64,000 nt of DNA, from contig NZ_CP025257.1 in NCBI RefSeq assembly GCF_002843565.1, forward strand, positions 806,001 through 870,000. The letters run 5' to 3'. Within the stretch, counting starts at the first letter, position 1; every line of letters begins with the position of its first letter. The stretch is from Mesoplasma syrphidae. Lineage in GTDB: Bacteria; Bacillota_I; Bacilli_A; Mycoplasmatales; Mycoplasmataceae. Below are positions 10,265-38,551 of this stretch, piece by piece. The notes beneath the pieces are model-generated. The model ran no database searches, was not told where the DNA came from, and worked only from the letters and a program-made list of their open reading frames with translations. Made by a program: the position numbers and the translations under genes.

Positions 10265-11617
10265 TTATTTTTCTAAACGCTTCAACTTTTCAAGTGCTTT
10301 TTGCTCTTTAGCAGCTTGTTTATTTTGCTTTGCAGGTTTAACCTTGTTTAAAATTATGCGATTAGAATTTTGTTTTGTTGGAGTGCTAATTCCAAAATAT
10401 TCTTTTTCGTATGAATAACCTGGTTTTCTAAATAACTGAGGAATTCCATATTGCGTCAAAATCATTCCTATTAATCCAATTAATGCTGTTAGACCAATTA
10501 TTGTTAGTGAAAGCGGTTTGTTATACATTATAAATAAATGATCATCAGGTCTTTCCATCTCTAAAAAGAAACGAACTAAATTTCAACCAAAGAAAAATGC
10601 AAATCCTTCAAATCCCGCTTTAATTACTGTGTAATGATGTGGATTGTTAGCTTCGACTAATGCCTTCCCAGACTGTCAGCGTTTTTTTACTATGTTGGTA
10701 TTGCTTGAATTAATTTTTGCAATTTTCTCCAAATACGCTACTTTGTTGCTTTCGTTTGAGTTAAATACAAATGCTTCATCCCAAACTTGTTTATAAGTTT
10801 TTTTGTCGCTTTTTGATCAGGGAGCAAAGAATTTTTTAAAACTAAATTTAAGATCAAAAGAATACTCATCCGGATTAATTTTTCAAGGCTTATTTCCCAA
10901 TAATTTGATTACAAATGGCACAACTAAAACAAAGAAAATTCATACTGCCAATAATGACAATGATTCTCACAAAAAAATTGGATTCATTTGATAAATTTCA
11001 CCTGGAACCCAGCCAAAAGGATTATTTGCACTACCGTCATAGACAGCAAGTGTATTATTTAAAATTCATTGAGGCAACTTTAATGATCCCTGTCCCCCAT
11101 TATATATATAGAGCGGTCGACCCATAACTTCATGATTAAAAAAATTTCCTCATCGACCGATTACTTGACCCCAAAGAATATTTGGTAAAATTGCATCCAT
11201 ATAAGTAAATAATGAGACTTTAGTTTTCTTACCAAGAAGCGCAAACATAATCAAGCCAACAAAGGTTGAAGTGTAAATTCCTCCATGAATTGCCATTCCT
11301 TCTTTTCAAAAGTATAATAGCTGAATTCCATGAGCATCTCCAGAATGCTTTCCAGGACCATCGGCGTTTAATTTACCAAAAAAACTTGCTCCCATTAAAG
11401 CAATTGGAACCAAAATAATTACAGCGATTGAAAGTTCCATTGTATTTAAACCACGACGAGAAAACTTTCAAAGACAAAAAATAACTGAAACCAAAATTCC
11501 CAAAGTCATTGCTAAAGCATAAACATGAACAAATCCATAATCTGGCTTAACTCAGCCTCATAAATTCTTGACTCTTTCATCAAATATTCAGTTTTTGCCT
11601 TGTACTCAATCAATCAC
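10265..11617 (-). CDS. lgt: Prolipoprotein diacylglyceryl transferase, copy 1
   Basis: About 450 residues when many TGA codons are read as Trp. The Lgt signature GRWGNFFNHEVMG lies near 154-166 and AIHGGIYT near 109-116. Lgt attaches diacylglycerol to the lipobox Cys of prolipoproteins in the membrane, and the GH85 lipoprotein at 30326 is a likely substrate. The protein is longer than bacterial Lgt (about 260-300): a hydrophilic insert of about 130 residues precedes the last helices, and the C-terminus is Lys/Gln-rich. No ATG is in frame: TAA lies shortly upstream, and the best start is GTG at 11617 after TGGGGTGAT. A second copy lies beyond trxB. Confidence 0.88.
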
Positions 11618-11652: not shown

Positions 11653-12594
11653 TTATCTTAAGTTTTGTAAATATTCTACAGCCATTTGACCAGCCATTGC
11701 TCCGTCTCCAACTGCAATTGCAATTTGACGTAAAGGCACATCACGAACATCACCAGCTACATATAATCCCTCAATGCTCGTGCGCATTTTTGGATTAGCT
11801 AGTACATAGCCACTTTCATCAGTTATTTTCAAATCTGATACAAACTGCGTAATCGGAGTTGCTCCAATATAAGGAAATATTGCACTAACTTTCAATTCTT
11901 GAGTTTTTCCTGTCACTAAATCTTTGACCTTAATTGCTTCAACCTTAGTTTCCCCAATTATTTCTTCAACAACAGATTCCATTAAGAACTTAACGTTTGA
12001 CATTGAGCGAAGTTTTTCAACTGCTACAATATCAGTTCTAAAGTGATCCTTACGAACAATTACATATAATGTATCAACAAATTTTTTTAAGTACATTCCT
12101 TCTTGAACGGCAGAGTACCCACCACCAACAACAGCAACATCTTTGCCTTTATGAAATGCACCATCGCAAACTGCACAATAACTAACACCTTTACCATATA
12201 AGCGTTGTTCTCCAGGAACTCCCAATTCATTTTCTTTTGTTCCTGTCGCCAAAATAACTGTTTTTGCATATAATATTTTTTCATTTAATAAATGAATTTC
12301 AAACAGTCCTTCAGAAATTTTTTTGACATGAACAACTTCATTAAATTCAAAGCTTGTTCCAAAACTAGTTGCATGTGCATACATTTTGATTGACAAATCA
12401 GGACCCATAATTGCTTCATGCCCTGGGAAGTTTTCAATCATTTCAGTCTTGATCATTTTTCCTCCAGGAGCTTCTTTTTCAACAATAACTGTATTTAAAC
12501 CAGCTCTTGATGTATAAACGGCCGCAGTCATTCCTGCAGGCCCTCCTCCAATAATTAGAACGTCAATAACTTCTTTATTAGTATGATTTTTCAT
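11653..12594 (-). CDS. trxB: Thioredoxin reductase
   Basis: A 313-residue flavoprotein. The FAD-binding GGGPAGMTAAVYTSRAG is near 16-32, the redox-active pair is in YCAVCDG near 140, the NADPH-binding GGGYSAVQEG follows, and the second FAD segment is GLYVAGDVRD. It passes electrons from NADPH to thioredoxin in the cytoplasm. In most TrxB the active site is CATC or CAVC, so it is intact. It sits between two lgt copies, 19 bases after the upstream one. Confidence 0.96.
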   Translation of the reverse strand: MKNHTNKEVIDVLIIGGGPAGMTAAVYTSRAGLNTVIVEKEAPGGKMIKTEMIENFPGHEAIMGPDLSIKMYAHATSFGTSFEFNEVVHVKKISEGLFEIHLLNEKILYAKTVILATGTKENELGVPGEQRLYGKGVSYCAVCDGAFHKGKDVAVVGGGYSAVQEGMYLKKFVDTLYVIVRKDHFRTDIVAVEKLRSMSNVKFLMESVVEEIIGETKVEAIKVKDLVTGKTQELKVSAIFPYIGATPITQFVSDLKITDESGYVLANPKMRTSIEGLYVAGDVRDVPLRQIAIAVGDGAMAGQMAVEYLQNLR

Positions 12595-12613
12595 ATAATC
12601 ATCCTACCTCTCT

Positions 12614-14074
12614 TCATTTATAAGGTGCAGTAAATTGTGCTATTAAAATAATTCCTATTCCGACTAATAGCAAAATTGCTAAAACTGTGAAATTTAATTC
12701 TGGCATGTTTTGAATAAAGTACTCTTGAGGATTTCGAAAAGCTTCCAAAATTATTCTAATAAGTAAGTATCCAAATATATATGATCCTGTAATAACCCCA
12801 GAGCGAATAACAAAAAAACTATTAGGATTATTAAGCTTTTCCAATGCTCTTGCATCAGGATTAACATTAAGTCTTCTACTTCACTTACCGATTTGACTAT
12901 ATATTTCGTTGCGCTTTAAAATATAGCTTTTCTTATATTCAACTTTTTTTAACTTATTATTTGTTTGTTTAGCTTTAATTTTTAATTGTGATTTAAGTTG
13001 TAAAATTCGTTGCTCACCTTGATAGCGGCGATTAGCACGTTCTTCAGCACTATTTTCAAATTCTGCTACAGCCAAAGAATTGGGTTCATATCAATAATAA
13101 GCTTTATTCCATGCTTTTCAAAATGATAGCTTAAGTTCGATAATTTCGCCATTTTCTCCCGTAAATCGAACTTGTTTATATTTTATAGGAACAAGCGTAC
13201 TTTTTGTAGTTAATTTATCTTCGGCAATTGATTTGTAGTGTTTGTTATATCATCCGGGATAAGCAGTTGGCTCTAAGTCCCATGGTTTTGACTTGTTAAA
13301 AAAACGGCTTAAATTAGCAATTAAAAAAGTTATTATCAGTCATAAACTAAAAGTTGCTATTGCTTCATATAAAAATAATGGTTGGCGAAATTCTAATGAT
13401 GTTTCTCTTAAAAAAGTTTCAAGCGTTATTTCGCCATTGCTATAGGTACTTCAAATTTCTGGGCTACTAAATCAATTTGCTGGTAATCCTTGACCTAACC
13501 CATCTTTAAATTCGCTTAAATTTGGAAAATAGAAAAGTTTATTCCTAATAAAATCTGGTAGCCAATTCAAATCTTCATAGTCAACAACAGTGCCCATAAT
13601 TTCGTGATTAAAAAAGTTTCCTCAACGTCCAATTGATTGTCCCAGTAAAATATTTGGAATAATACAATCGGCATAAACTCATACAGAAATCATCGTTAAC
13701 TTTGATCGCTTATACAAAAGCACGAACCCTGCTGTGATTCCTAAAAATAGCGAACCAAACAATGACATTCCTGGCTCCCAAAAGAAAAATATGCGTCACC
13801 ATGGCATCCCTGGAATAAAGGCTTTTCCAAAGATTGATGCGCCAATAACTCCTATAGGTACAACTAAAACAACTGCTCATTCAAATTCGCGTAAAGGAAT
13901 ACCCTTCATTTTGAAGTGAATTATTGAAGCAACTATTGTAAGCAAAATCCCACCAAACATAAAAATTGGGTATGCTGGAACTATTCCAAATAATAATCGT
14001 TCATTCGCCGGATCACCAAAATTTGTGATTCAATCCCCAAGGCTTCAACCTCCAATATTTGTCAACAATGTCAT
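12614..14074 (-). CDS. lgt: Prolipoprotein diacylglyceryl transferase, copy 2
   Basis: A 486-residue membrane protein with about a dozen TGA-encoded Trp. The Lgt signature SIGRWGNFFNHEIMG is intact. Like copy 1 it carries a large hydrophilic insert (about 180 residues, with a very basic segment ANRRYQGEQRILQLKSQLK) before the two final helices, which end HFTVLA-type and QFTAPYK. The start is ATG at 14074, three bases after the hprK stop, with GAGG inside the hprK end. Two intact copies in one operon point to gene duplication. Whether both are active cannot be told from sequence. Confidence 0.87.
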
Positions 14075-25789: not shown

Positions 25790-26770
25790 ATGAATACTAA
25801 AAATGAAAAACAGACAATACTTATTATTGACGGTTATCATTTATTACACAAAGGTTACTACGGATCATTAAAAAGAAAAACAGTTGCTGTAAATCGTGAT
25901 GGGGTTATGATTAATGCCATTTATACTTTCGTAGCAAAAATTAATGAGCTAATTGATATGAACATTTATCATACAATTATTGTTACCTTTGATGTTGGTC
26001 AAGGATGTTGAAGAAGAGACTTATACCCTGAATACAAAGCAAAGCGAAAAGAAACTCCAGAGGAATTAATTCCTCAAATGCAAATTATTAGACAGTTTTT
26101 AACGTCAGCAAATATTCCATGATATGAAAAGCCTCGTTACGAAGGTGATGATGTTATGGGAACAATTTCAAAAATTGCTTGCAAATTAGGGTACAATGTT
26201 CACATTCTGTCTAATGATAAAGATACCTTTCAATTAGTAAGCGATGACGTAAAAATTATTACTAACGTCAGTAAAAAAGAAAAACCAACTTTTGTAGAAC
26301 TTTCTGAAGTTTACGAAAAATTTGGTTGTTCTCCAAAACAAGTTCCCGATATTAAAGCTATGATGGGTGACTCTTCAGATAACATCAAGGGAATTAAATG
26401 TTTGCACTACAAACAAGCAACAGATTTATTAGAAAAGTTTGGAACTGTGGAAAATATTTATGCTAATATTACTCAAATTCCACCATCAATTTGTAGCAAG
26501 CTTGTTAGTTCAAAAGAGCAAGTGTTGCTAAATAAAAAGATTGCCACTATTCAAAATAATGTTCAACTTGGTAGAATTGATTTTCGCAAGTTGCGTATTA
26601 ATTGATACGCATATTTGAAATTTTTAAAGGAACAAAAAATGTGAGCTTTCACTGGAAATGTTGTTAAAAACATTGAAAATATTAAGACTAACGGCTACGA
26701 CCATTCAACACAAAAATGTGCTGACACAACAATGAATAAAATTTGTGGAAATAAAAAGGCAAATATCTAA
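25790..26770 (+). CDS. 5'-3' exonuclease (PolA N-terminal type)
   Basis: A 326-residue stand-alone exonuclease, with TGA-encoded Trp splitting the frame. Metal-binding residues are visible in IIDGYHLLHKGYYGS, YEGDDVMGTISKIA, LSNDKDTFQLV and MGDSSDNIKGI, followed by the helix-hairpin-helix region. Such proteins remove RNA primers and flaps. Many Mollicutes have the exonuclease without the polymerase domain of Pol I, and this one ends about 25 residues past the domain in an Asn/Thr-rich stretch. It is 51 bases after the YigZ gene. Confidence 0.93.
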
Positions 26771-26777
26771 TAGATTT

Positions 26778-26810
26778 AAAAATCGAGACATTACAATGGC
26801 TTGATTTTTT
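26778..26810 (+). terminator. Terminator after the exonuclease gene
   Basis: Imperfect stem AAAAATCGAG / CTTGATTTTT with a 12-base loop and following T tract, just after the stop at 26770. Confidence 0.6.
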
Positions 26811-26924
26811 AAACTTTTTTATCAAATTTCACTATTTTAATTGCATAAATATTTATTTTTATTAGTGTTACAAAATATTTTTCAATCGTAGTTATAATTA
26901 AAATGAAATGGGAGATCGAAAAAT

Positions 26925-27512
26925 ATGAAGGCTAAAAATATATTTTTTTTGTCAGGATTGAGTGAATCTGGAAAATCACTTGCTGGTGAATGAGCGACAA
27001 GTATGGGAATATTTAGGTTGAAAATAATTTACTTTGAAAAAATAATTGCTAACATTAAGGGATTGTCAATGAATAACAAAACTGAAACTGAGAATGTTAT
27101 TAAAATTTTATACTCTGATGAGCAAAAAATGTTTAAGGAATTTCGAGATCATATTTATGAGTTTATGGTGGCAAATAAGTGTTCTGCAATTTCATTAGAG
27201 TCCTTGTATAGAGCAAAGCTGGCTGATTCTTTTAAAAAAGATTCAAGATTTAATACTGAAGTTATTTATATTGAGGCTGATATTCAGAAAAGAATCGAGA
27301 GAGAATATCTAAAACAAAAAGATGCAAATAAAACAGCTAACATCAAACAAATTGAAAAAGAGACAACAGAAAAGGATTTGTTCAAAATTTCAAATGGCGT
27401 CTTGGATGTTAAAAAAATTGCAACAAAAATTATTAATAACGACAATTCGATGGAAGAATTTAAAGCTGAAATAGTTAAAATATTTGATTCCAATAAAAAT
27501 AGCAAAGCGTAG
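26925..27512 (+). CDS. P-loop NTPase/kinase-like protein of unknown function
   Basis: A 195-residue protein that starts MKAKNIFFLSGLSESGKSLA: a strand followed by a P-loop GLSESGKS at 11-18. After that it is helical and charged, with DIQKRIEREYLKQKDA and an Asn-rich C-terminal region. The P-loop at the very N-terminus and the basic RIERE segment resemble nucleoside or dephospho-CoA kinases, but no other motif of these families was recognised. It has its own TATAAT (26893-26898) and a strong terminator, so it is monocistronic. GGGAG precedes the ATG. Confidence 0.65.
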
Positions 27513-27582
27513 CAAAAAAATGATTAAAGTGAATCCATTTTATGTTCACTTATATACTTAAATTGAAATAAATTAAATACAC

Positions 27583-27616
27583 AAAAAAGTCTTTTCAAGT
27601 TCGAAAAGACTTTTTT
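27583..27616. terminator. Bidirectional terminator
   Basis: AAAAAAGTCTTTTC / GAAAAGACTTTTTT, a 14-base-pair perfect stem with a six-base loop, between the convergent P-loop gene (plus) and membrane-protein gene (minus). Confidence 0.9.
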
Positions 27617-27678
27617 AGTAAAACATATTGATATAAAAACTGAATACTTAAATTACAAATTTAATATATAATGAAATT

Positions 27679-29313: not shown

Positions 29314-29423
29314 TGATTTTACTTTAAATGTTCAAAAATATGTGCGCTTTGCTTTTTTTTATAAACTTAGCTTTTTAAAAATAATGAGTTAAAATAAAGA
29401 TGTATAAGAAAGGTTTTATAAAA

Positions 29424-30068
29424 ATGCATATAGACAAACAAGCAAAAATTGCTAAGACTGTATTAATAGCTGGAGACCCAAAAAGAACCAAGTGAGCAGC
29501 TGAAAAGTTGTTAACTAATCCAATTTTAGTATCTGATGTTCGCGCAGCTTCTGTTTACACAGGAACATACAAAGGGCACGAAGTTTCATTTGCAACTTCA
29601 GGAATGGGACAGCCTTCAATTGCAATTTATGCAACTGAATTATTTGTTGATCATGATGTTCAAAAAATTGTTCGTGTAGGAACAACTGGAACTTATAAGG
29701 ATGACATTGATATTGGAACTGTTGTAGAAGCATATAAAGTCGTTAGCCAAAATAGTATTTTTGAGCCTAATAAAAATGGATGACAAGCAATTGAACCTAA
29801 ATTCACTTTGGGAATTGGTCGTCCGGTTTTAAGTCATTGTTCGGATTTGTTTTATAATGACAACGAGTTAGGAAGAAATGACTTAGATGTTGTTGATATG
29901 GAAAGTTATGCGCTTTTATATTTGGGAAACAAGTTTAATCGTCACGCTCATGTTATTTTGACAGTTTCTGATAATTTGAATGATTCTTCAAAGATTATGA
30001 CTGCTCTTCAAAGAGAACAAGCAACACTGGAAATGTATCAAATGGTGCTGAACAAATTATTTGAATAA
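29424..30068 (+). CDS. deoD: Purine-nucleoside phosphorylase, DeoD type
   Basis: A 214-residue protein, shorter than E. coli DeoD (239). It keeps AGDPKRTKW (phosphate binding), TSGMGQPSIAIY, KIVRVGTTGTY, VVDMESYALL for ribose contact and LTVSDNL with the catalytic Asp. It cleaves purine (deoxy)nucleosides with phosphate to base and (deoxy)ribose-1-phosphate. The products feed the phosphomutase and DeoC encoded at 38658 and 40355. AAAGG lies 12 bases before the ATG. Confidence 0.93.
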
Positions 30069-30095
30069 TAAACAATAACTCTTTCAGTTTTTAAC

Positions 30096-30129
30096 AAAAA
30101 AAGAAAGCCCAAAGTGGCTTTCTTTTTTT
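30096..30129 (+). terminator. deoD: Terminator of deoD
   Basis: Stem AAAGAAAGCC / GGCTTTCTTT with a six-base loop and T run, 28 bases past the stop. The following 195 bases to 30325 hold no gene; a weak hairpin AAAAAG / CTTTTT near 30293-30320 could end the minus-strand GH85 operon. Confidence 0.85.
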
Positions 30130-30325
30130 AAAATTATTTTGCTTTTTATTAGCAATTTATAAAATATCCTTATATATTCACTAATTGAATTCAGTTTTGA
30201 TAAATAGGTACTCTATTATTTTATTAAGTTTTATAATTATAAAATTATGCAAAAATATTATAGCCTTGAATATCTATCGTTCGTTCTTATATGCAAAATA
30301 AAAAGCACACTACTTTTTAAAAAAA

Positions 30326-33166
30326 CTATTTTTCATAATTATATTTGGTATCAAATTCTACAAAACTGATTTTGCCCATTTTGCCATTTTTGTATCTTGG
30401 TTGTACTCCAATATAAATTTTTTGATTATCTGATTCATCAATTTCTCTAACATAATATTTATTTTGTGAAGTCTGCCCTACTCTGTATCAACTATCTTTA
30501 TCAGTTGAATAATAAATGTGATAATAGTCAACTAAACTTTTATTTTGATCATTTCATGAAAACCTAATGTTGATATTATTTTTGTTTTTTCTTTTGACAA
30601 TGTAATCATTTTGAATTTTACTAATTGCATCCTTGATAGGTAGATCGAATTTACCTACCTGATTTTTTTCTAGTGTGAAACCACCTACATTAAAAATAAA
30701 TTGTTTTTCAGCATCAGAATCATCTTGACCAGGATTTATTTGAACTCCAATTTTGGCAATTCTTTCTTCCTTACCAATATTATTCAACTCTGACAAGTCA
30801 GATGATATTTTATACCATCCATCTTTTTGGTACTCTACATTAGTTTTCAGAACTTCTGGTCTTGCGTCCACTTCTTGTTCAGATAGTTTTGAAGTAAAGG
30901 CGGTTATTTTTGTATTCTTAGCTATTTCAGAAATTTTTTCATTAGAAGACTTCTCATTTGAGTCTTCAAGTGTTGACTTGACATAAAAGCTCGCCGTGTA
31001 GCTATTTTTTTGGAGATTTGTTCCCATTATATTTCAGTAATACGAGTTATTTTTTCATATTCCTGGTTTGACTGTACCTTCTTTATCAAAGTCATATCCC
31101 ATACCAATTGCCAATGAATTACCTTTTTGATAAGCATCATAGTAATCATAGTAGCCTGTAAGTTGACCATAAGGCGTTATTTTACTTACATTTTTTTTAC
31201 CATCTGCAGTTTCTATTTCAACAGTGCTGTCATTTTGCTTTTCAGATCAAAAGTCTCATTGATAAGTTGGAGCGACATCCGCCATTCTTGAATTAGTTCA
31301 TGGATATATTTGATTATTAATAATATTCTTGTTTTGATCTCTATTCAAATACTGAATTCCTGAGCCTGTTGAAAAGTATGTTTCAATAGTGGGATCATTT
31401 TCAATTTCATTTGCCACATTTTTATCTAGAGTGCTATAGTCATTAGATAAAACCGAATCTGCCACAACAGTTTTTTCTCAAAAAGAATTTCCTATTCCAT
31501 AGCTCTTAGTCTTTTGACCATTTTCTTTTAGCATAAAATTTTCTTGAACTGATTCATTTCAATCATTCCTTTTATCAAAATCCTTATAGCTTAATCTTGG
31601 ATCAGATTGATAAATTGCTGAGATATTTTGCTGATTTTGAGAAATTAGCTTATCGTAGCCTCTTGCTGAATTATCTAAGTAACCATTGGTACCAAAAAAT
31701 TGATAATTTGAATATAAGTTTGATACTTCTTGTTGCATTAAAAGAACCTTATATTTGTCAACATAGTTACCTGTCTCTTTTTGCTTTCTATTAAATCAAT
31801 TTTTAAAGTCTTTTGCGTATTCGTTGGCGCCTCCTGAACCAAATATTGAAAATGAATTATTTGCGGTACTTGAAAAGTCAAACGCGTTTTCCGACTGTTT
31901 TTTTTCAAAAATTAAATTTCTCACATCGTAATTACCTACACCTGGTATATTTGTACTTTCATTTAGTAGTGAGTAAATTGTTTTTCTCTTTGAGTTATCT
32001 CCTTTTCAAATATTTTCCAAATATTTATCATAATTTGAAACATTATTATCATAAGTAAAATCTAATTGCATTTCGCTGGCATACTTTGCTGCCTCAATAG
32101 TTTTTTTAGAATTTGGAGTATTATTAATGGGGTCATAAGTTAGCGAACCGTCATTTGTGTAGTGTACAATATGGAGTTTCTTACCAATTTTTGGCTCCAA
32201 TTCGTCTGCTCTTTTGCTAAATTCCTTCATTATTTCATTAATTTCTGAGTTTTTAATAACATAACCGTCGCCTTGAGAGCCGTTTGCTTCATTATTTATC
32301 ATTCAGCCATCAAAATTATATTTTAGACATTGATCTATTAAGATGTCTACTATTTTAAATTCTCCATTAGAGTTTTTTTCCAGCAATTTTCTTAATGATT
32401 CTCTTGTCAAATCTTCTCATCCCGACATATATCATAACCCCAAAACTGGCACACCATTTTTGTGCATGTAATCCGTATAATCTGCAAAAGAAGTTGTTAA
32501 TCATCCCTTATTTGTTATTGCAGGTCATGTATACATTTCGTGAATATAACTTAAGTTAGTTAAATTTCCTCCAAAAGGATTTTTGGTTCCAACAATTGAA
32601 CTTGAAGAATTAGAGGGGTCATGAAACATATTAAAGAAAGTTTCTTTTTGCTGACCATTTACGCTGTTTTTTGCAACATAATTTCTACCTCTTAAATCTG
32701 TAGAAGCAATGTTATAGTCCAAATCCATATCTTTTCCATTATTTCACTCTTGTATTGAATTTATATGCAAGTATTTTCTGGACTTACTGGATAATCCGTA
32801 GTCTGATCACATATTTCCATTTGGTCTATAGGACTTTATAACTGGCGAACCGGTTGTCGCCTGTTTTTTTATAAAGTTGGCTCCTTTATATGACGTAGAG
32901 TACTTATCATAGTCAAAGATCTTGTCAACTGGTCCTTGAGCAGAGTCAACTTCTTTTAAGTCAAGGTATTTTGTGCCATCATTATATTCATTGTATTTTC
33001 AATTAAAGCCATCACCGTCATCAACTTGCTCTGATTCCCAATTAAAATCATTTAAACTCTCTAAATATTTTCTTGTTGAAAATTCCCCGATGTTGCAAGA
33101 AACCACATTTAAAACTGTTCCCGTCGCAATGCTTAATGCTGATAGGCCTACTATTAACTTTTTCAC
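30326..33166 (-). CDS. Lipoprotein endo-beta-N-acetylglucosaminidase, family GH85
   Basis: A 946-residue protein, with many TGA-encoded Trp. A signal peptide ends in a lipobox with Cys24 (LNVVSCN), so it should be a surface lipoprotein. The GH85 domain (about 150-480) shows MHKNGVPVLGLWY (235-247) and FDGWMINNEANG, whose N291-x-E293 matches the catalytic Asn-x-Glu of GH85 enzymes. GH85 cuts the chitobiose core of N-glycans and leaves one GlcNAc on the protein. The C-terminal third (about 700-946) looks like beta-sandwich accessory modules, the last fibronectin-like. The start is GTG at 33166 after AAAGGAG, overlapping the upstream permease gene by 13 bases. Substrate in this organism is inferred. 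Confidence 0.88.
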
Positions 33167-34092
33167 TTTTTTTCTCCTTTTAATTTAAAATCTAAGCTTA
33201 GTAAAAATATACATAGTGTTCAGCAAATAGAACAAATTAGCGATATGGGCAATATTAAATTTGCCTTATTTGTTAAAAAAGTAAACGGTATCTCAAGATT
33301 TGAACTCACAATGGTTTCTAAAATATTATATTGAATTAAAGTTGTGTTTGTAAAAAGTGAAATGAGCAACCATTGGAAAGATTTGGTAGGAATTAAATAT
33401 CCTACTGTATTATAAATCATTTGTGCAGTTCTATTTGTAATTAGATTTGTATCAAATATAGTATCGCTTAGCCCCAAAAATAGAATAATTAGTGTCAGGT
33501 TCAAAGCTTGAATAACCACTATCGATTTAATCTTAAATGAGACTATAGTTGACATGCAAAACATTAAAAACATATACATTAAAAAAGTAAAGAAAATAAA
33601 TAATACTGCTACAAAAAAAGTTAAGTATTGTTTCACTTTATCATTTGACTTATAAAAATTTGACATGTTAAAAAAGGTATTCGTAAAGTTCCTTATTAAT
33701 AAAAAGTTGTCGATAAAAACCAGAAATGAGAAACAAAAAATAACTGCTAGAAATGTTAATAGCAAAATAGATACAAAAATTGACAAATATATTTTCGTTT
33801 TTCCTATTGAAAATATCTTGGACTGCTTCATGAGTACGCTTTCTTTTCAATTGGTTATTGTAGAGGAAAATGCAAAAATTGAAAAGGTAAAGGGAATTAT
33901 AAATAAACAATACATTTGTCCCGAAATTTCAGAATAATCTTTATTACCAAAGGATGTTTTTATTAAGTAAATTGCTACAGTTATGAAAGTTGGTAGTACA
34001 ATCGAAAATAAATAATTTCTTATAGACTTGAATGTAGAATTCAACGTAAACATCAAAACTGATTTAAATGGTATACCTGTTTGCTTGAACAT
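33154..34092 (-). CDS. ABC-2 type transporter permease B
   Basis: A 312-residue protein with about six hydrophobic helices, joined across a TGA-encoded Trp near 33844. It starts MFKQTGIPFKSVLMF, with an amphipathic N-terminal helix before the first membrane segment, as in ABC-2 permeases. Its codons overlap the end of permease A's intergenic region closely and overlap the GH85 start by 13 bases. ABC-2 systems export lipids, peptides or polysaccharides or act on the envelope; the substrate here is unknown. The sequence is strikingly rich in Phe, Leu, Ile and Asn. Confidence 0.78.
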
Positions 34093-34107
34093 AAAGTTTC
34101 TCCGATT

Positions 34108-34980
34108 CTATTTTCATTTAAAAGTTTTTATCGATAATAAAAATAGCACTAATATTGTTAAAATACTTATAATTATTAGGGCAGCTAAATTATTTAAAAA
34201 TATAACAGTTTCTGTCATTCCCTCATCATAAATTATTTGCTGAATGCCACCATTATAATCTGCAAAAGTAAACGAGGAAGTCACTAAAGAAATTCAAGCG
34301 GGATATTTAGTTAATGAAAGATATCCAGCATATGTCAAAATGGGAGATCTTGCCGAAATAAATGAAGGTATTACGATATCAGATGTTAATATTAAAATGA
34401 TTATGATAATTAAAGGTGTTGAAAATCTTAGATTTTTATTTTTTCATAAATCACCAATGCATGTGCTTAATAAGAAAGTTGTAGTCGTAATTAAAATTGT
34501 AACAAACGCAAATCAAATTCAATTTCAAAAGAAAAGATCGGTTACATAATAAAATTTAACTCTTATAAACATTAAAGAAACTAAATAAGTAGCAAAAATT
34601 GTGAATATTTCTCCAATAAAAGCAAAAAGTACTGCACATAGAATAAAAGAAAAAATGATGCTTCATTTTTTTATTCCAAGAAATCTAATTCTTTTGATCA
34701 GTGATGAATCTTTTCACTCAGATAAAAAAATAGCGAAATACGTTGTTGAAATAAATGAAGGTATTAAAAATATGTTGACCATTTGAGGTGGAAGCAATTC
34801 ATAAGAATTTGAAAAAGTTGAATACCCAATAAAGCAGGCAACTGAAAAAATTGTAGAAGAAAATATAACGAAAACTCATGCTCTTTCGTTTTTTAAGGAT
34901 GACAATAATGAGGCTTTGACTATTTTTCCAAGATTGGCTGCTTTTTTTGTATCAAAAAAAGCCAATTTAGTATTTTTCAT
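34108..34980 (-). CDS. ABC-2 type transporter permease A
   Basis: A 290-residue membrane protein that is hidden in single-frame views because of several TGA-encoded Trp. It begins MKNTKLAFFDTKKAANLGKI and has about six helices, with a large extracellular-looking loop before the last helix (GGIQQIIYDEGMTE). Two similar segments, IPSFIS, precede different helices. The ATG directly follows the ATPase stop. Permease B starts 16 bases downstream. Together with the ATPase they form a heterodimeric ABC-2 transporter. Confidence 0.75.
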
Positions 34981-35688
34981 TTACTGTAACTTTCCTTCAA
35001 AAAATAACTCTAAAAAAGATCTTACAGAACTGTATTCTTTTTTAATTTCTTTAATTTTTTTGTCCATGTAAATTTTTCCTTTATCCAAAACTATAATTCT
35101 ATTGCAAATTTGCTCTATTTCTTCAGGTATGTGCGAAATTATAATGAGAGTTATTTTTTCTTTTTTTCTTAGATTATCGAAAAAATTAATTAGTTTAATC
35201 TGCATTTTTAAATCCAAGCCTGTTATCAATTCATCAAGTATTAAAACACTAGGTTTTTTGATAATAGAAAGCATAGAGTTAAATCTTTGCTGCTCACCAC
35301 CTGAACAATCTGATAACCTCTTGACTATAATCTCCTTGACCTCAAAAATTTCAATAAGTTTGTTAACATATTCATCCTTTTTTCATTTTTTACCGATAAA
35401 TAGATTTAAGAAATCTGTTCCTTTTGTATTAAATGGTCAGTTACCACTTTGAAATTGCACTCCTATTTTTTCTTGAATATTTTTTTCGATTTTGTTGTCC
35501 TTGTCATAAAATAAAATTTTTCCTTCAGTAGGTTCTGTTACCCCAGAAATTATTTCAACTAGTGTCGTTTTACCAGCCCCATTGGCTCCTAAAACTCCTA
35601 CTGCCTCTCCATCCTTTATAATTAATGACAAATTATCCAAAATTATGTTTTCGTTATATTTTTTTGTAAGATTTTTAATTTCTATCAT
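34981..35688 (-). CDS. ABC transporter ATP-binding protein
   Basis: A 235-residue ATPase. Walker A is GANGAGKT at about 35-42, the Q-loop is GVQFQSGNW, the signature is DCSGGEQQRF, Walker B is VLILDELITGLD, and the switch His is in IISHIPEEI. One TGA in the middle is Trp, so the two visible halves are one protein. The usual LDEPTxGLD reads LDELITGLD, but the catalytic Glu is present. It starts one or two bases after the secreted-protein gene and precedes two ABC-2 permease genes. Confidence 0.93.
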
Positions 35689-35689
35689 T

Positions 35690-37012
35690 TTAACTCATTT
35701 CATCCATTGCAAACATTAGCAGATTTCATGTTTTATCAACAAAATTTCTCATTGTATTATTAAAATCTATTCACGGATTGAATGGTAACCTTTCTCTATT
35801 TTTGATATCATTTTTTGTTTGATGCAAGTCCTTGTCAAATTTATTAACGTCCTTCCCATCATCATTTTTTTCAAATTCAATTATATTATTTTGATCATAG
35901 CTTATATATGATGTTCTCTTTAAATTATTTTGATCTGTAAAAACAAAAATTCTTAAATCAAAATAAGCATTATATTTATATGCATAATAAAGAGTAGACG
36001 CAGGATTTGAACCATTGTAATTAAAAGGAGTTTTTACTCCTTCCAATGGCGGAGCTTTAACTTTATACATTTCAGAATTAGGATCTATATAATTTATATA
36101 ATTTAAAGCTATTTCGCAATAAATTTTTATGAGATTATTTGCTATATAGCATTGCAAATTTGTTGTATCAGAATTGTATTGGTTTCAATCTCACATTCTA
36201 AAATTTATAAAATTCTCAGAATTATGATAATCAACTAAGATTTCTAATGATTTTCTATTATAGTAAGGATCATATATATTTAGAACTTTATTTTCATTGT
36301 CATCTTTTTTAACAGCCTTAAATTCTAAATTAATGCTTGTTCCTTGATAGTCTTTTATTGTGTTCTTATTTATTTTTGAAGTCGTTTTAAAAAAAATATT
36401 GCTCGTTTTGTTTGAGTTATCAACTTGATAGAATATGTTTTCTTTTCCTGACTCATCAACATCTTTATATATAGAATTCTCAATAATGTTTGTTATTTGA
36501 ATTAAGTCTTGCTTGTCATCTTTTTTTCTGACATACATTTTGTAACCTTGTTTTTCCAACTCTTCAAAATTTGCTATTTCATATCTTTCAATTTCATTTA
36601 ACTCAGAAACTGTTGGCTTACCATAGCCAAATGTTTGTAATCCTAAATAAATTGCATCTGTAAGTTTAGATTTATGAGATATAGGTTTCATTTTGTTCAT
36701 ATCAATATCAATTGCTGCTGGTTTTTCTGACAAAATGTCTTTCATGTACCCTTCCATTTGTCATTTGTAACTTCAGTCATATGCAGAAGAAAAAGAGCTT
36801 GAGTCATCCAAAAGTTTTTCTCAACTTCTTCTAAACTCTGGTATTAAAGGTATATCTTTAAAATTTAGCAAATTTTCTAAAGCCTGAGTGCTTTTAGGAC
36901 CCTTTCTTATTGCCAAACTTTTTCTAATTATATCTATGCTTGAATAAATTGGAATAGAAGCTAAACAAAGGAAACCAACTGTAAGACAGCTTATTATACT
37001 TTTCTTTTTCAT
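35690..37012 (-). CDS. Secreted protein of unknown function, first gene of the GH85/ABC cassette
   Basis: A 440-residue protein. The N-terminus MKKKSIISCLTVGFLCLASI is a signal peptide or membrane anchor; a Cys follows in GFLC, but no clear lipobox is seen. The rest is hydrophilic, Lys/Asn/Asp-rich and Trp/Tyr-containing (WDWNQYNSD, NGSNPASTLYYAYKYNAYFD), as in extracellular Mollicutes proteins. It ends WNLLMFAMDEMS without a C-terminal anchor. No family was recognised. The stop lies one base before the ATPase ATG region. It may be a substrate-binding or glycan-handling partner, but nothing in the sequence proves this. Confidence 0.7.
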
Positions 37013-37217
37013 CTTTTGCCTTCCTATTTCAAATTTGCATAGTGATTTTAACTTTTAAGATTTTATCATACAATAATTTCTTAATCCAAAATTTAAATCA
37101 AATATTAATTAATCAACCAAAAATTTTGAAAACTATTGACTATTATTGACAATTAATTTATTGATTTTTATTATTTTATATTTACCTTTGAAAGAAAAAA
37201 GCACTTTTATATATAGC

Positions 37218-37254
37218 AAAAAAAATCTAAAATCACATTAGGATTTTAGATTTT
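37218..37254 (-). terminator. deoA: Terminator of deoA
   Basis: Stem AAAATCTAAAATC / GATTTTAGATTTT with a short loop, followed on minus by TTTTTTT. The deoA stop at 37253-37255 lies at the foot of the stem. The bases 37013-37217 hold the promoter region of the GH85/ABC cassette; several AT-rich -10-like boxes exist, none clearly best. Confidence 0.8.
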
Positions 37255-38551
37255 ATTTAATAATCTTTAAAATAACTGGAGTTTTTGTTTGCTTTTGAGA
37301 AATTTCAAAAGTTTGATATGCCATATCAATTCAATTTGGATCAATACCTTTATTAGTAAATAAAGTCATAATAGTATCTCCTTTATTTACGCGGCTACCG
37401 CTATCAGCATTCAAATAAATTCCTGCTGCAAAATCAATTTTATCCTTTTTAGTAGCACGGCCAGCTCCTAAACGCATTGATAATAAACCTAGCTGATTAG
37501 CATTTGTAAAATTAACATACCCAGAACTCATTGCCTTAATTTCTAAAGAGTTGGCAACAGCAAAATGCTTATCATAATTTTTAATTACACTAAAGTTTCC
37601 GTGTTGAGCTTTTACAAATTCTTCAAAAATATGAGCCGCTTCTCCAGTTTGCATTTTTTGGCAAACACTTTGATATGCAATGTCAAAATCATCAAACAAT
37701 TGAGCTTGTACTAAAGTTATTGCCACAGCAGTAGCCACTAAATGATTAAAATCTTCAGGACCTTTGCCATTTAATGAATCTCATGCTTCTTTAACTTCCA
37801 ATGCATTTCCAATCGCCTTTCCCAAAGGTTTGTTCATGTCAGTGATCATGATAGCAATCTGACGATTGTGTTGTCTTGCAATTCCAATCATTGCTTGGGC
37901 TAAGTTTTCTGCCTCTGTCAGGGTTTTCATAAATGCGCCATTTCCCATTTTAACGTCAAGAATCAAGCTATCATTTTCAATTACAAGTTTCTTGCTCATA
38001 ATTGACGCTGCAATTAGTGGAATTGAGTCAACTGTTCCCGTAACGTCTCTCAATGCATAAATCTTTTTATCTGCAGGAACTAAGCCTTCATTTTGGCTCA
38101 TTAGCGACATTCCTACTTTATTAATGACTTTTTTAAATTCATTATCGCTAATTTCTGATTTTCAACCTGGAAAGGATTCCAACTTATCAATAGTTCCTCC
38201 CGTTTGGCCCAATCCTCGACCACTTAATTTACATACTTTAATCCCATAACTAGCTACTAATGGTGCGAAGACTAGGGTTGTTTTATCGCCAACGCCTCCA
38301 GTAGAATGCTTATCAGCTTTGAAACCTTGAATATCAGAAATATCATAAGTAATTCCTGATTCGACATATGCCTTAGTTAAAGCTGCTGTTTCTTTTTCTG
38401 TCATTCCATTAAATCAAATTGCCATTAACATACTAGCCATTTGATAATCAGCTATATCTTCTTTTAAGTAACTTTTAATCAGCCAATCAATTTCTACTTC
38501 TGTTAATTGTTGATTCTGTTTCTTTTTTTCAATTAAATCTGCGAATGTCAT
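37253..38551 (-). CDS. deoA: Pyrimidine-nucleoside / thymidine phosphorylase
   Basis: A 432-residue protein of normal length. The family signature is clear: [36 protein letters not shown], and phosphate-binding Lys/Ser residues in these glycine-rich loops. It converts thymidine, deoxyuridine or uridine plus phosphate to base and (deoxy)ribose-1-phosphate. AGGAGGCAAAATG forms the start at 38551. TGA-encoded Trp lie near 37328, 37778 and 38159. It is divergent from the phosphomutase-deoC pair that consumes its product. Confidence 0.95.

What the first reader, a model, noticed from the sequence alone, without database searches (positions are those of the whole stretch)
30326..37012. Cassette combining a GH85 endo-beta-N-acetylglucosaminidase lipoprotein with an ABC-2 transporter and a secreted unknown protein
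Five minus-strand genes lie nose to tail (stop-start gaps of 1-16 bases, one 13-base overlap): a 440-residue secreted protein, an ATPase, two ABC-2 permeases and a lipoprotein with the GH85 N-x-E catalytic pair. GH85 cuts N-glycans from glycoproteins. For a wall-less host-associated bacterium this suggests surface deglycosylation, for nutrition or for altering host immune proteins. The link of GH85 with an ABC-2 system and this unknown protein is not something I know from described glycan loci, which usually carry importers. The region is flanked by housekeeping genes and looks more AT- and Asn-rich, so it may be an acquired island.
Basis: partly seen in the sequence, partly recalled or inferred. 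Interest (0 to 1): 0.82.

Follow-up and report, generated by a model that had tools for sequence, protein, structure and literature searches.

The report
Surface N-glycan cutter linked to ABC-2 pump
A wall-less bacterium carries a probably horizontally acquired five-gene unit that pairs a surface enzyme predicted to cut sugar chains off host glycoproteins with an ATP-driven ABC-2-like membrane complex and a new surface protein, and this undescribed pairing recurs in most relatives that have the enzyme, which suggests that the membrane machine and the enzyme work together.

Summary
The five minus-strand genes at 30326-37012 are a secreted protein (SecX), an ABC ATPase, two divergent ABC-2-like permeases and a GH85 lipoprotein (PF03644, E 3e-15) with conserved N291, E293 and Y336. 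The linkage is not local. In relatives of the same family, 52 of 56 GH85 loci carry a same-strand permease of this family within two genes, in several gene orders. In another Mollicute family 5 of 5 are linked. Only 8 of 77 non-Mollicute GH85 genes have any ABC ATPase within four genes (51 of 56 in the family). SecX occurs in 10 of 60 genomes, only inside the complete cassette. The cassette is a 7.16-kb indel: the sister species (SecA 94%) has a clean empty site, and the ten cassettes occupy nine different surroundings. The genome lacks GH38, GH92, GH125 and GH20, so N-glycan nutrition is unlikely. Two divergent GH85 genes of one relative lack ABC-2; one lies between GH38 mannosidases. Best explanation: a surface de-N-glycosylation module whose ABC-2 complex serves the enzyme, comparable to MIB-MIP and its F1-like ATPase. 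Enzyme activity and physical coupling are inferred, not shown. I found no published description of the combination.

The parts
35690..37012 (-). SecX: 440-aa extracytoplasmic protein, first gene of the cassette. N-terminal TM anchor (lipobox in several relatives), helical base, beta-rich middle domain, C-terminal helix.
   Evidence: ORF; AF2 pLDDT 83, pTM 0.80; no Pfam or PDB sequence match; no PDB fold with E<=0.001; found in 10 of 60 genomes, always with the cassette
34981..35688 (-). ABC ATPase, 235 aa (ATG 35688; the TTG at 35712 is not the likely start)
   Evidence: PF00005 E 2.3e-24; sequence
34108..34980 (-). PermA: first ABC-2-like permease, 290 aa
   Evidence: No Pfam match on its own; homologous to PermB and to permeases of which 6 of 22 hit ABC2_membrane_3
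33154..34092 (-). PermB: second ABC-2-like permease, 312 aa
   Evidence: PF12698 E 0.0011, below the gathering cut-off; 23% identity to PermA
30326..33166 (-). GH85 lipoprotein, 946 aa: lipobox VVSC24, GH85 catalytic domain about 204-454, possible GH85_C domain 861-939; catalytic N291, E293, Y336
   Evidence: PF03644 E 3.3e-15; PF21910 E 7.7e-4, below cut-off; PDB 3fha/2vtf; residue conservation and alignment with Firmicutes GH85
30081..37243 (.). 7.16-kb segment absent from sister species G055; lies between convergent deoD (29400-30068 +) and deoA (37253-38551 -)
   Evidence: blastn and junction alignment against L294
30096..30129 (+). Terminator-like stem-loop just inside the left end of the segment, after deoD; near-symmetrical, so it may also serve the cassette on the minus strand
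   Evidence: consensus match only

Best explanation
The cassette encodes a cell-surface de-N-glycosylation module. The GH85 lipoprotein, anchored outside the membrane, cleaves the chitobiose core of N-glycans on host glycoproteins. The ABC ATPase and the two ABC-2-like permeases form a membrane complex that serves the enzyme, with SecX as the membrane-tethered external adaptor. I commit to an accessory role powered by ATP (gating or activating the enzyme, or releasing the bound glycoprotein or product), rather than nutrient import. This is comparable to the F1-like X0 ATPase that MIB-MIP needs, and to FtsEX acting on external hydrolases. The cassette moves as one unit by horizontal transfer. 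Shown here: GH85 homology, conserved active-site residues, the family-wide linkage in several gene orders, SecX exclusive to the cassette, the indel against the sister species, and absence of four downstream glycosidase families. Inferred: catalytic activity, substrate, complex formation and the ATP-driven step.
For: GH85; active-site N, E and Y conserved and aligned with Firmicutes GH85. Linkage: 52 of 56 family loci have a same-strand permease within two genes; 51 of 56 have an ATPase within four genes, against 8 of 77 non-Mollicute GH85 genes; 5 of 5 in another Mollicute family. Several architectures keep the link, including GH85 encoded between two permeases (types C and C4), and architecture follows the GH85 tree (10 changes, minimum 8). 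SecX is found only with the cassette, and SecA/SecB homology is clear. Same unit at different sites. Empty site. No GH38, GH92, GH125 or GH20 in the genome, with control genomes positive. Precedent: an F1-like ATPase is required for MIB-MIP and co-purifies with MIB and MIP (PMC12994834); FtsEX acts as a signal transmitter, not a transporter (PMC11627006).
Against: No biochemical data. ABC-2 proteins normally export, and nothing here shows that the permeases touch GH85 or SecX. Single-permease type D cassettes have no recognisable SecX-like partner, so SecX is not essential to the general scheme. In a few type C loci the ATPase is not in line (L095, L099, L101, L103). L071 keeps a GH85 without ABC-2. 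The GH85 structure prediction failed (pLDDT 48), so active-site geometry was not tested. The ATPase Fisher test treats related loci as independent.
Confidence: 0.5

Rival explanations
1. The ABC-2 system is a protective or exporting pump (for host antimicrobial peptides, lipids or similar, like LanFEG immunity pumps with their lipoprotein) and is merely co-regulated with GH85 in a host-interaction operon.
For: An ATPase plus two roughly 290-310-aa permeases and a surface lipoprotein resembles lantibiotic-immunity LanFEG/LanI architecture (own knowledge); the ATPase's NCBIfam matches are generic, below cut-off, and include exporters and a lantibiotic-protection family.
Against: The partner is a GH85 enzyme in several gene orders, even encoded between the permeases. 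How often these permeases occur without GH85 was not surveyed.
Confidence: 0.22
2. The ABC-2 complex imports the glycans released by GH85 for nutrition.
For: Streptococcus pneumoniae couples EndoD (GH85) with the ABC importer NgtS-P1-P2 (PMC5215778).
Against: No known SBP family or fold match for SecX; ABC-2 is an exporter family; no GH38, GH92, GH125 or GH20 in the genome; GH92 and GH125 in 0 of 60, GH20 in 1 of 60, GH38 in 8 of the 33 GH85-bearing genomes. The GH38-linked GH85 of G031 lacks ABC-2.
Confidence: 0.13
3. The ABC-2 complex exports SecX, GH85 or an unencoded glycolipid or peptide, and the surface proteins are cargo rather than partners.
For: ABC-2 systems export peptides and glycans (own knowledge); GH85 and SecX are extracytoplasmic.
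Against: GH85 has a lipobox and SecX a TM anchor or, in relatives, a lipobox, so Sec and Lgt should suffice; SecA and two Lgt genes lie in the window.
Confidence: 0.1
4. GH85 and ABC-2 genes are unrelated passengers of one mobile island.
For: The cassette is an indel with varying chromosomal sites.
Against: The link holds over divergent clades, several gene orders and another Mollicute family, with overlapping or abutting genes in the window.
Confidence: 0.05

Closest known systems
GH85 endo-beta-N-acetylglucosaminidases (PDB 3fha/2vtf, EndoD, Enterococcus and Lactococcus GH85)
   Same: Catalytic domain, FDGWxIN-x-E motif and the catalytic Tyr region are conserved.
   Different: Lipoprotein in an operon with ABC-2-like permeases; divergent (best segments about 26-37% identical to other loci of the genome scan); no downstream glycosidases found in the genome.
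Streptococcus pneumoniae N-glycan system (EndoD, GH92/125/38, NgtS-P1-P2; PMC5215778)
   Same: Surface GH85 in a host-associated bacterium, functionally tied to an ABC system.
   Different: NgtS-P1-P2 is an SBP-dependent importer with downstream mannosidases; here ABC-2-like permeases, no SBP match, and GH38, GH92, GH125 and GH20 absent.
MIB-MIP plus F1-like X0 ATPase of mycoplasmas (PMC12994834)
   Same: External host-protein-processing system that systematically co-occurs with an ATP-driven membrane complex in Mollicutes.
   Different: MIB-MIP is an antibody-binding protein and protease with an F-type-like ATPase; here a glycosidase with an ABC-2-like complex, and no functional data.
FtsEX with external hydrolases (PMC11627006, PMC6355983)
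   Same: ABC complex linked with an external hydrolase, in some genera through a mediator protein.
   Different: FtsX is an ABC3-type permease and acts on peptidoglycan; these permeases are ABC-2-like and the host has no wall. Similarity of logic only.
LanFEG/LanI lantibiotic immunity (own knowledge)
   Same: One ATPase, two different permeases, surface lipoprotein.
   Different: The lipoprotein here is a GH85 enzyme of 946 aa.

Membership tests
GH85 (PF03644) | Profile match above the curated cut-off | tested here: met
   56.8 bits vs 22.2, E 3.3e-15
GH85 (PF03644) | Catalytic Asn-x-Glu pair and helper Tyr | tested here: met
   N291, E293, Y336 conserved and aligned with Firmicutes NQE and WYDS motifs
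GH85 (PF03644) | Endo-beta-N-acetylglucosaminidase activity on N-glycans | not testable with these tools
   needs enzyme assay
GH85 (PF03644) | TIM-barrel fold | tested here: inconclusive
   AF2 model too poor, pLDDT 48
ABC-2 transporter | ABC ATPase | tested here: met
   PF00005 E 2.3e-24
ABC-2 transporter | Permease matches an ABC-2 family above cut-off | tested here: inconclusive
   PermB PF12698 E 0.0011, below cut-off; PermA none; 6 of 22 family members match PF12698, best 2.2e-6, one matches PF01061 at 3.7e-5
SBP-dependent N-glycan importer | Solute-binding protein | tested here: not met
   SecX has no Pfam or PDB sequence match and no significant PDB fold match
N-glycan catabolic locus | Downstream alpha-mannosidase or hexosaminidase in the genome | tested here: not met
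   No GH38, GH92, GH125 or GH20 in G000; control genomes positive
MIB-MIP | MIB, MIP and F1-like X0 ATPase genes in the cassette | tested here: not met
   The cassette holds GH85, ABC ATPase, permeases and SecX instead
FtsEX-like mechanotransmission | ATP hydrolysis changes external enzyme activity | not testable with these tools
   needs mutants and assays

The most novel reading that the evidence does not exclude
A new class of ATP-driven surface machine: an ABC-2-type complex that does not transport but works, through a tethered external adaptor in the two-permease versions, on a glycosidase that removes N-glycans from host proteins, spread horizontally as a cassette among wall-less bacteria.
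Probability: 0.27. Interest if true: 0.82.

Novelty: new variant of a known kind. Interest (0 to 1): 0.64.

Why it matters
GH85 enzymes were noted in Spiroplasma genomes as single annotated genes (PMC9666726, PMC7187355), but I found no description of their near-constant partnership with an ABC-2 complex. If the partnership is functional, it is a second case in Mollicutes, beside MIB-MIP, in which an external enzyme acting on host proteins is tied to an ATP-driven membrane complex. That would point to a general strategy by which wall-less symbionts and parasites remodel host glycoproteins, and would make the puzzle of how ATP drives external enzymes testable in a small, mobile cassette.

Tried and rejected
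The first genome-contig scan with P0001 found no relative; the scan with alignment A2 gave mainly Firmicutes and Actinobacteria GH85, used as controls. Plasmid blastn: no match. GH85 AF2 with 9 sequences failed and was not used. Foldseek of SecX gave only weak matches, many of them Ig-like or beta-sandwich, TM <=0.19 of query length, not taken as homology. SecX versus the U400 partners was not supported after signal peptides were removed (prob 0.8); SecX/SecB versus U250 is weak but above decoys (66.7 vs at most 0.4). The last comparisons of that script did not finish. PHROGs and PADLOC gave no match. The nutrition reading is disfavoured for lack of downstream glycosidases. Species not identified; one relative, G022, is Spiroplasma poulsonii MSRO_BK.

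Full report
Observation. Under genetic code 4 the window holds five adjacent minus-strand genes at 30326-37012: SecX (440 aa), an ABC ATPase (235 aa from ATG 35688), PermA (290 aa), PermB (312 aa) and a GH85 lipoprotein (946 aa). Gaps are 1, 0 and 15 bases, and PermB and GH85 overlap by 13 bases. GH85 matches PF03644 at E 3.3e-15 and the PDB GH85 enzymes 3fha and 2vtf. PF21910 (GH85_C) matches below its cut-off. The catalytic N291 and E293 are present, and Y336 aligns with the WYDS tyrosine of Firmicutes GH85. Among family members the Asn-x-Glu pair is intact in every sequence that covers the motif except L076, where Glu is Gln.

Surroundings and origin. The window lies in a 908-kb genome read with TGA as Trp. 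The flanks are deoD and deoA, convergent. Sister species G055 (SecA 94% identical) aligns at about 81-87% DNA identity on both sides, but window 30081-37243 is missing and the two genes are joined by a short terminator-like stem. GC of the segment is 27.6% against 31.3% for the rest of the window. GH85 is absent from G055 and G054, and G053 of the same genus carries a different type. Window GH85 is about 70% identical to those of G012 and G003 in other genera, close to the SecA identity of 70% and 67%, which is high for a surface protein. Gene order is the same in all ten SecX-type genomes, but conserved flanks are shared only by the close pair L081/L082. Horizontal movement of the whole unit is the simplest account; loss in G055 with patchy retention is not excluded.

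The linkage is general. In relatives of the same family, GH85 homologues occur in 33 of 60 genomes. Their loci were fetched with flanks, genes called and profiles built from the window proteins. Of 56 loci, 52 have a permease of this family on the same strand within two genes and 51 have an ABC ATPase within four. Architectures: A, SecX-ATPase-Perm-Perm-GH85 (10 genomes, including the window); B, ATPase-Perm-Perm-SecB-GH85 (5); C, U250-ATPase-Perm-GH85-Perm (13, some with the ATPase displaced); C4, U400-ATPase-Perm-GH85-Perm (4); D, GH85-ATPase-Perm with one permease (about 17 loci, two of them with GH85 last). The rest are L066, two decayed loci (L074, L105) and four without permeases. In the GH85 tree the types fall almost into clades (10 changes, minimum 8). 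In another Mollicute family five of five GH85 loci are linked, while the single GH85 of a third family is not. Among 77 GH85 loci from other bacteria, 8 have any ABC ATPase within four genes and none has a permease of this profile (the permease profile is biased to Mollicutes, the ATPase profile much less so). The four loci without permeases are L071 (near a transposase), L077 (decayed), and L075 and L076 of one genome; L075 lies between two GH38 alpha-mannosidases, and both belong to a separate divergent clade.

The secreted protein. SecX is found in 10 of 60 genomes, only with the complete cassette. It is anchored by a TM helix in the window clade and has a lipobox in several relatives. AF2 gives a confident model (pLDDT 83, pTM 0.80) with a helical base, a beta-rich middle and a C-terminal helix. 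No PDB fold reaches E 0.001; many of the weak matches are beta-sandwich domains. It is clearly homologous to the SecB lipoprotein of type B (hhalign 98-99%). The shorter U250 partners are possible remote relatives (66.7% against at most 0.4% for shuffled decoys); the U400 partners are not supported once signal peptides are removed.

Function. The genome has none of GH38, GH92, GH125 or GH20, while control genomes are positive. In the family, GH92 and GH125 are absent from all 60 genomes, GH20 occurs in one, and GH38 in 15, of which 8 carry GH85. A classical N-glycan nutrition pathway, as in Streptococcus pneumoniae with an SBP-dependent importer (PMC5215778), is therefore not supported. The permeases are divergent ABC-2-like proteins: 6 of 22 match PF12698, the window's PermB weakly and PermA not at all. 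My best explanation is a surface deglycosylation module whose ABC-2 complex serves the enzyme by an ATP-driven step. MIB-MIP gives a precedent: an F1-like ATPase systematically co-occurs with it, is needed for its function, and co-purifies with it by an unknown mechanism (PMC12994834). FtsEX gives a precedent for an ABC complex acting as signal transmitter to external hydrolases (PMC11627006). Activity, substrate and complex formation are inferred.

Novelty. GH85 genes in Spiroplasma are mentioned as single genes in two papers. Searches for GH85 with ABC-2 found nothing relevant by title and abstract. Only open-licence PMC papers are held. I rate it a new variant of a known kind, with a real chance of being a new type of machine.

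Noticed in passing
window 10265-11617 and 12578-14074 (-): Two LGT (prolipoprotein diacylglyceryl transferase) genes, both with long C-terminal extensions, flanking a thioredoxin-reductase-like gene (11653-12594, named from its sequence only).
   Followed up: partly
window 25790-26770 (+): Stand-alone 5'-3' exonuclease with no polymerase domain.
   Followed up: partly
window 26762-27676: A second segment, holding a 195-aa P-loop-like gene with no Pfam match, is also absent from sister species G055.
   Followed up: partly
L075 2952-18354 and L076 (genome G031): Two divergent GH85 genes without ABC-2; the L075 copy lies between two GH38 alpha-mannosidases. The L076 copy has Asn-x-Gln in place of Asn-x-Glu.
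   Followed up: partly
L105 (same genome as L147, Spiroplasma poulsonii MSRO_BK): The GH85/permease cassette is broken into pseudogene pieces.
   Followed up: no
L095, L099, L101, L103: Type C cassettes whose ATPase is on the opposite strand or missing nearby, suggesting an ATPase supplied from elsewhere.
   Followed up: no
L227 (genome G063, another Mollicute family): Its GH85 nests inside the type C clade of the window's family, suggesting transfer between families.
   Followed up: partly
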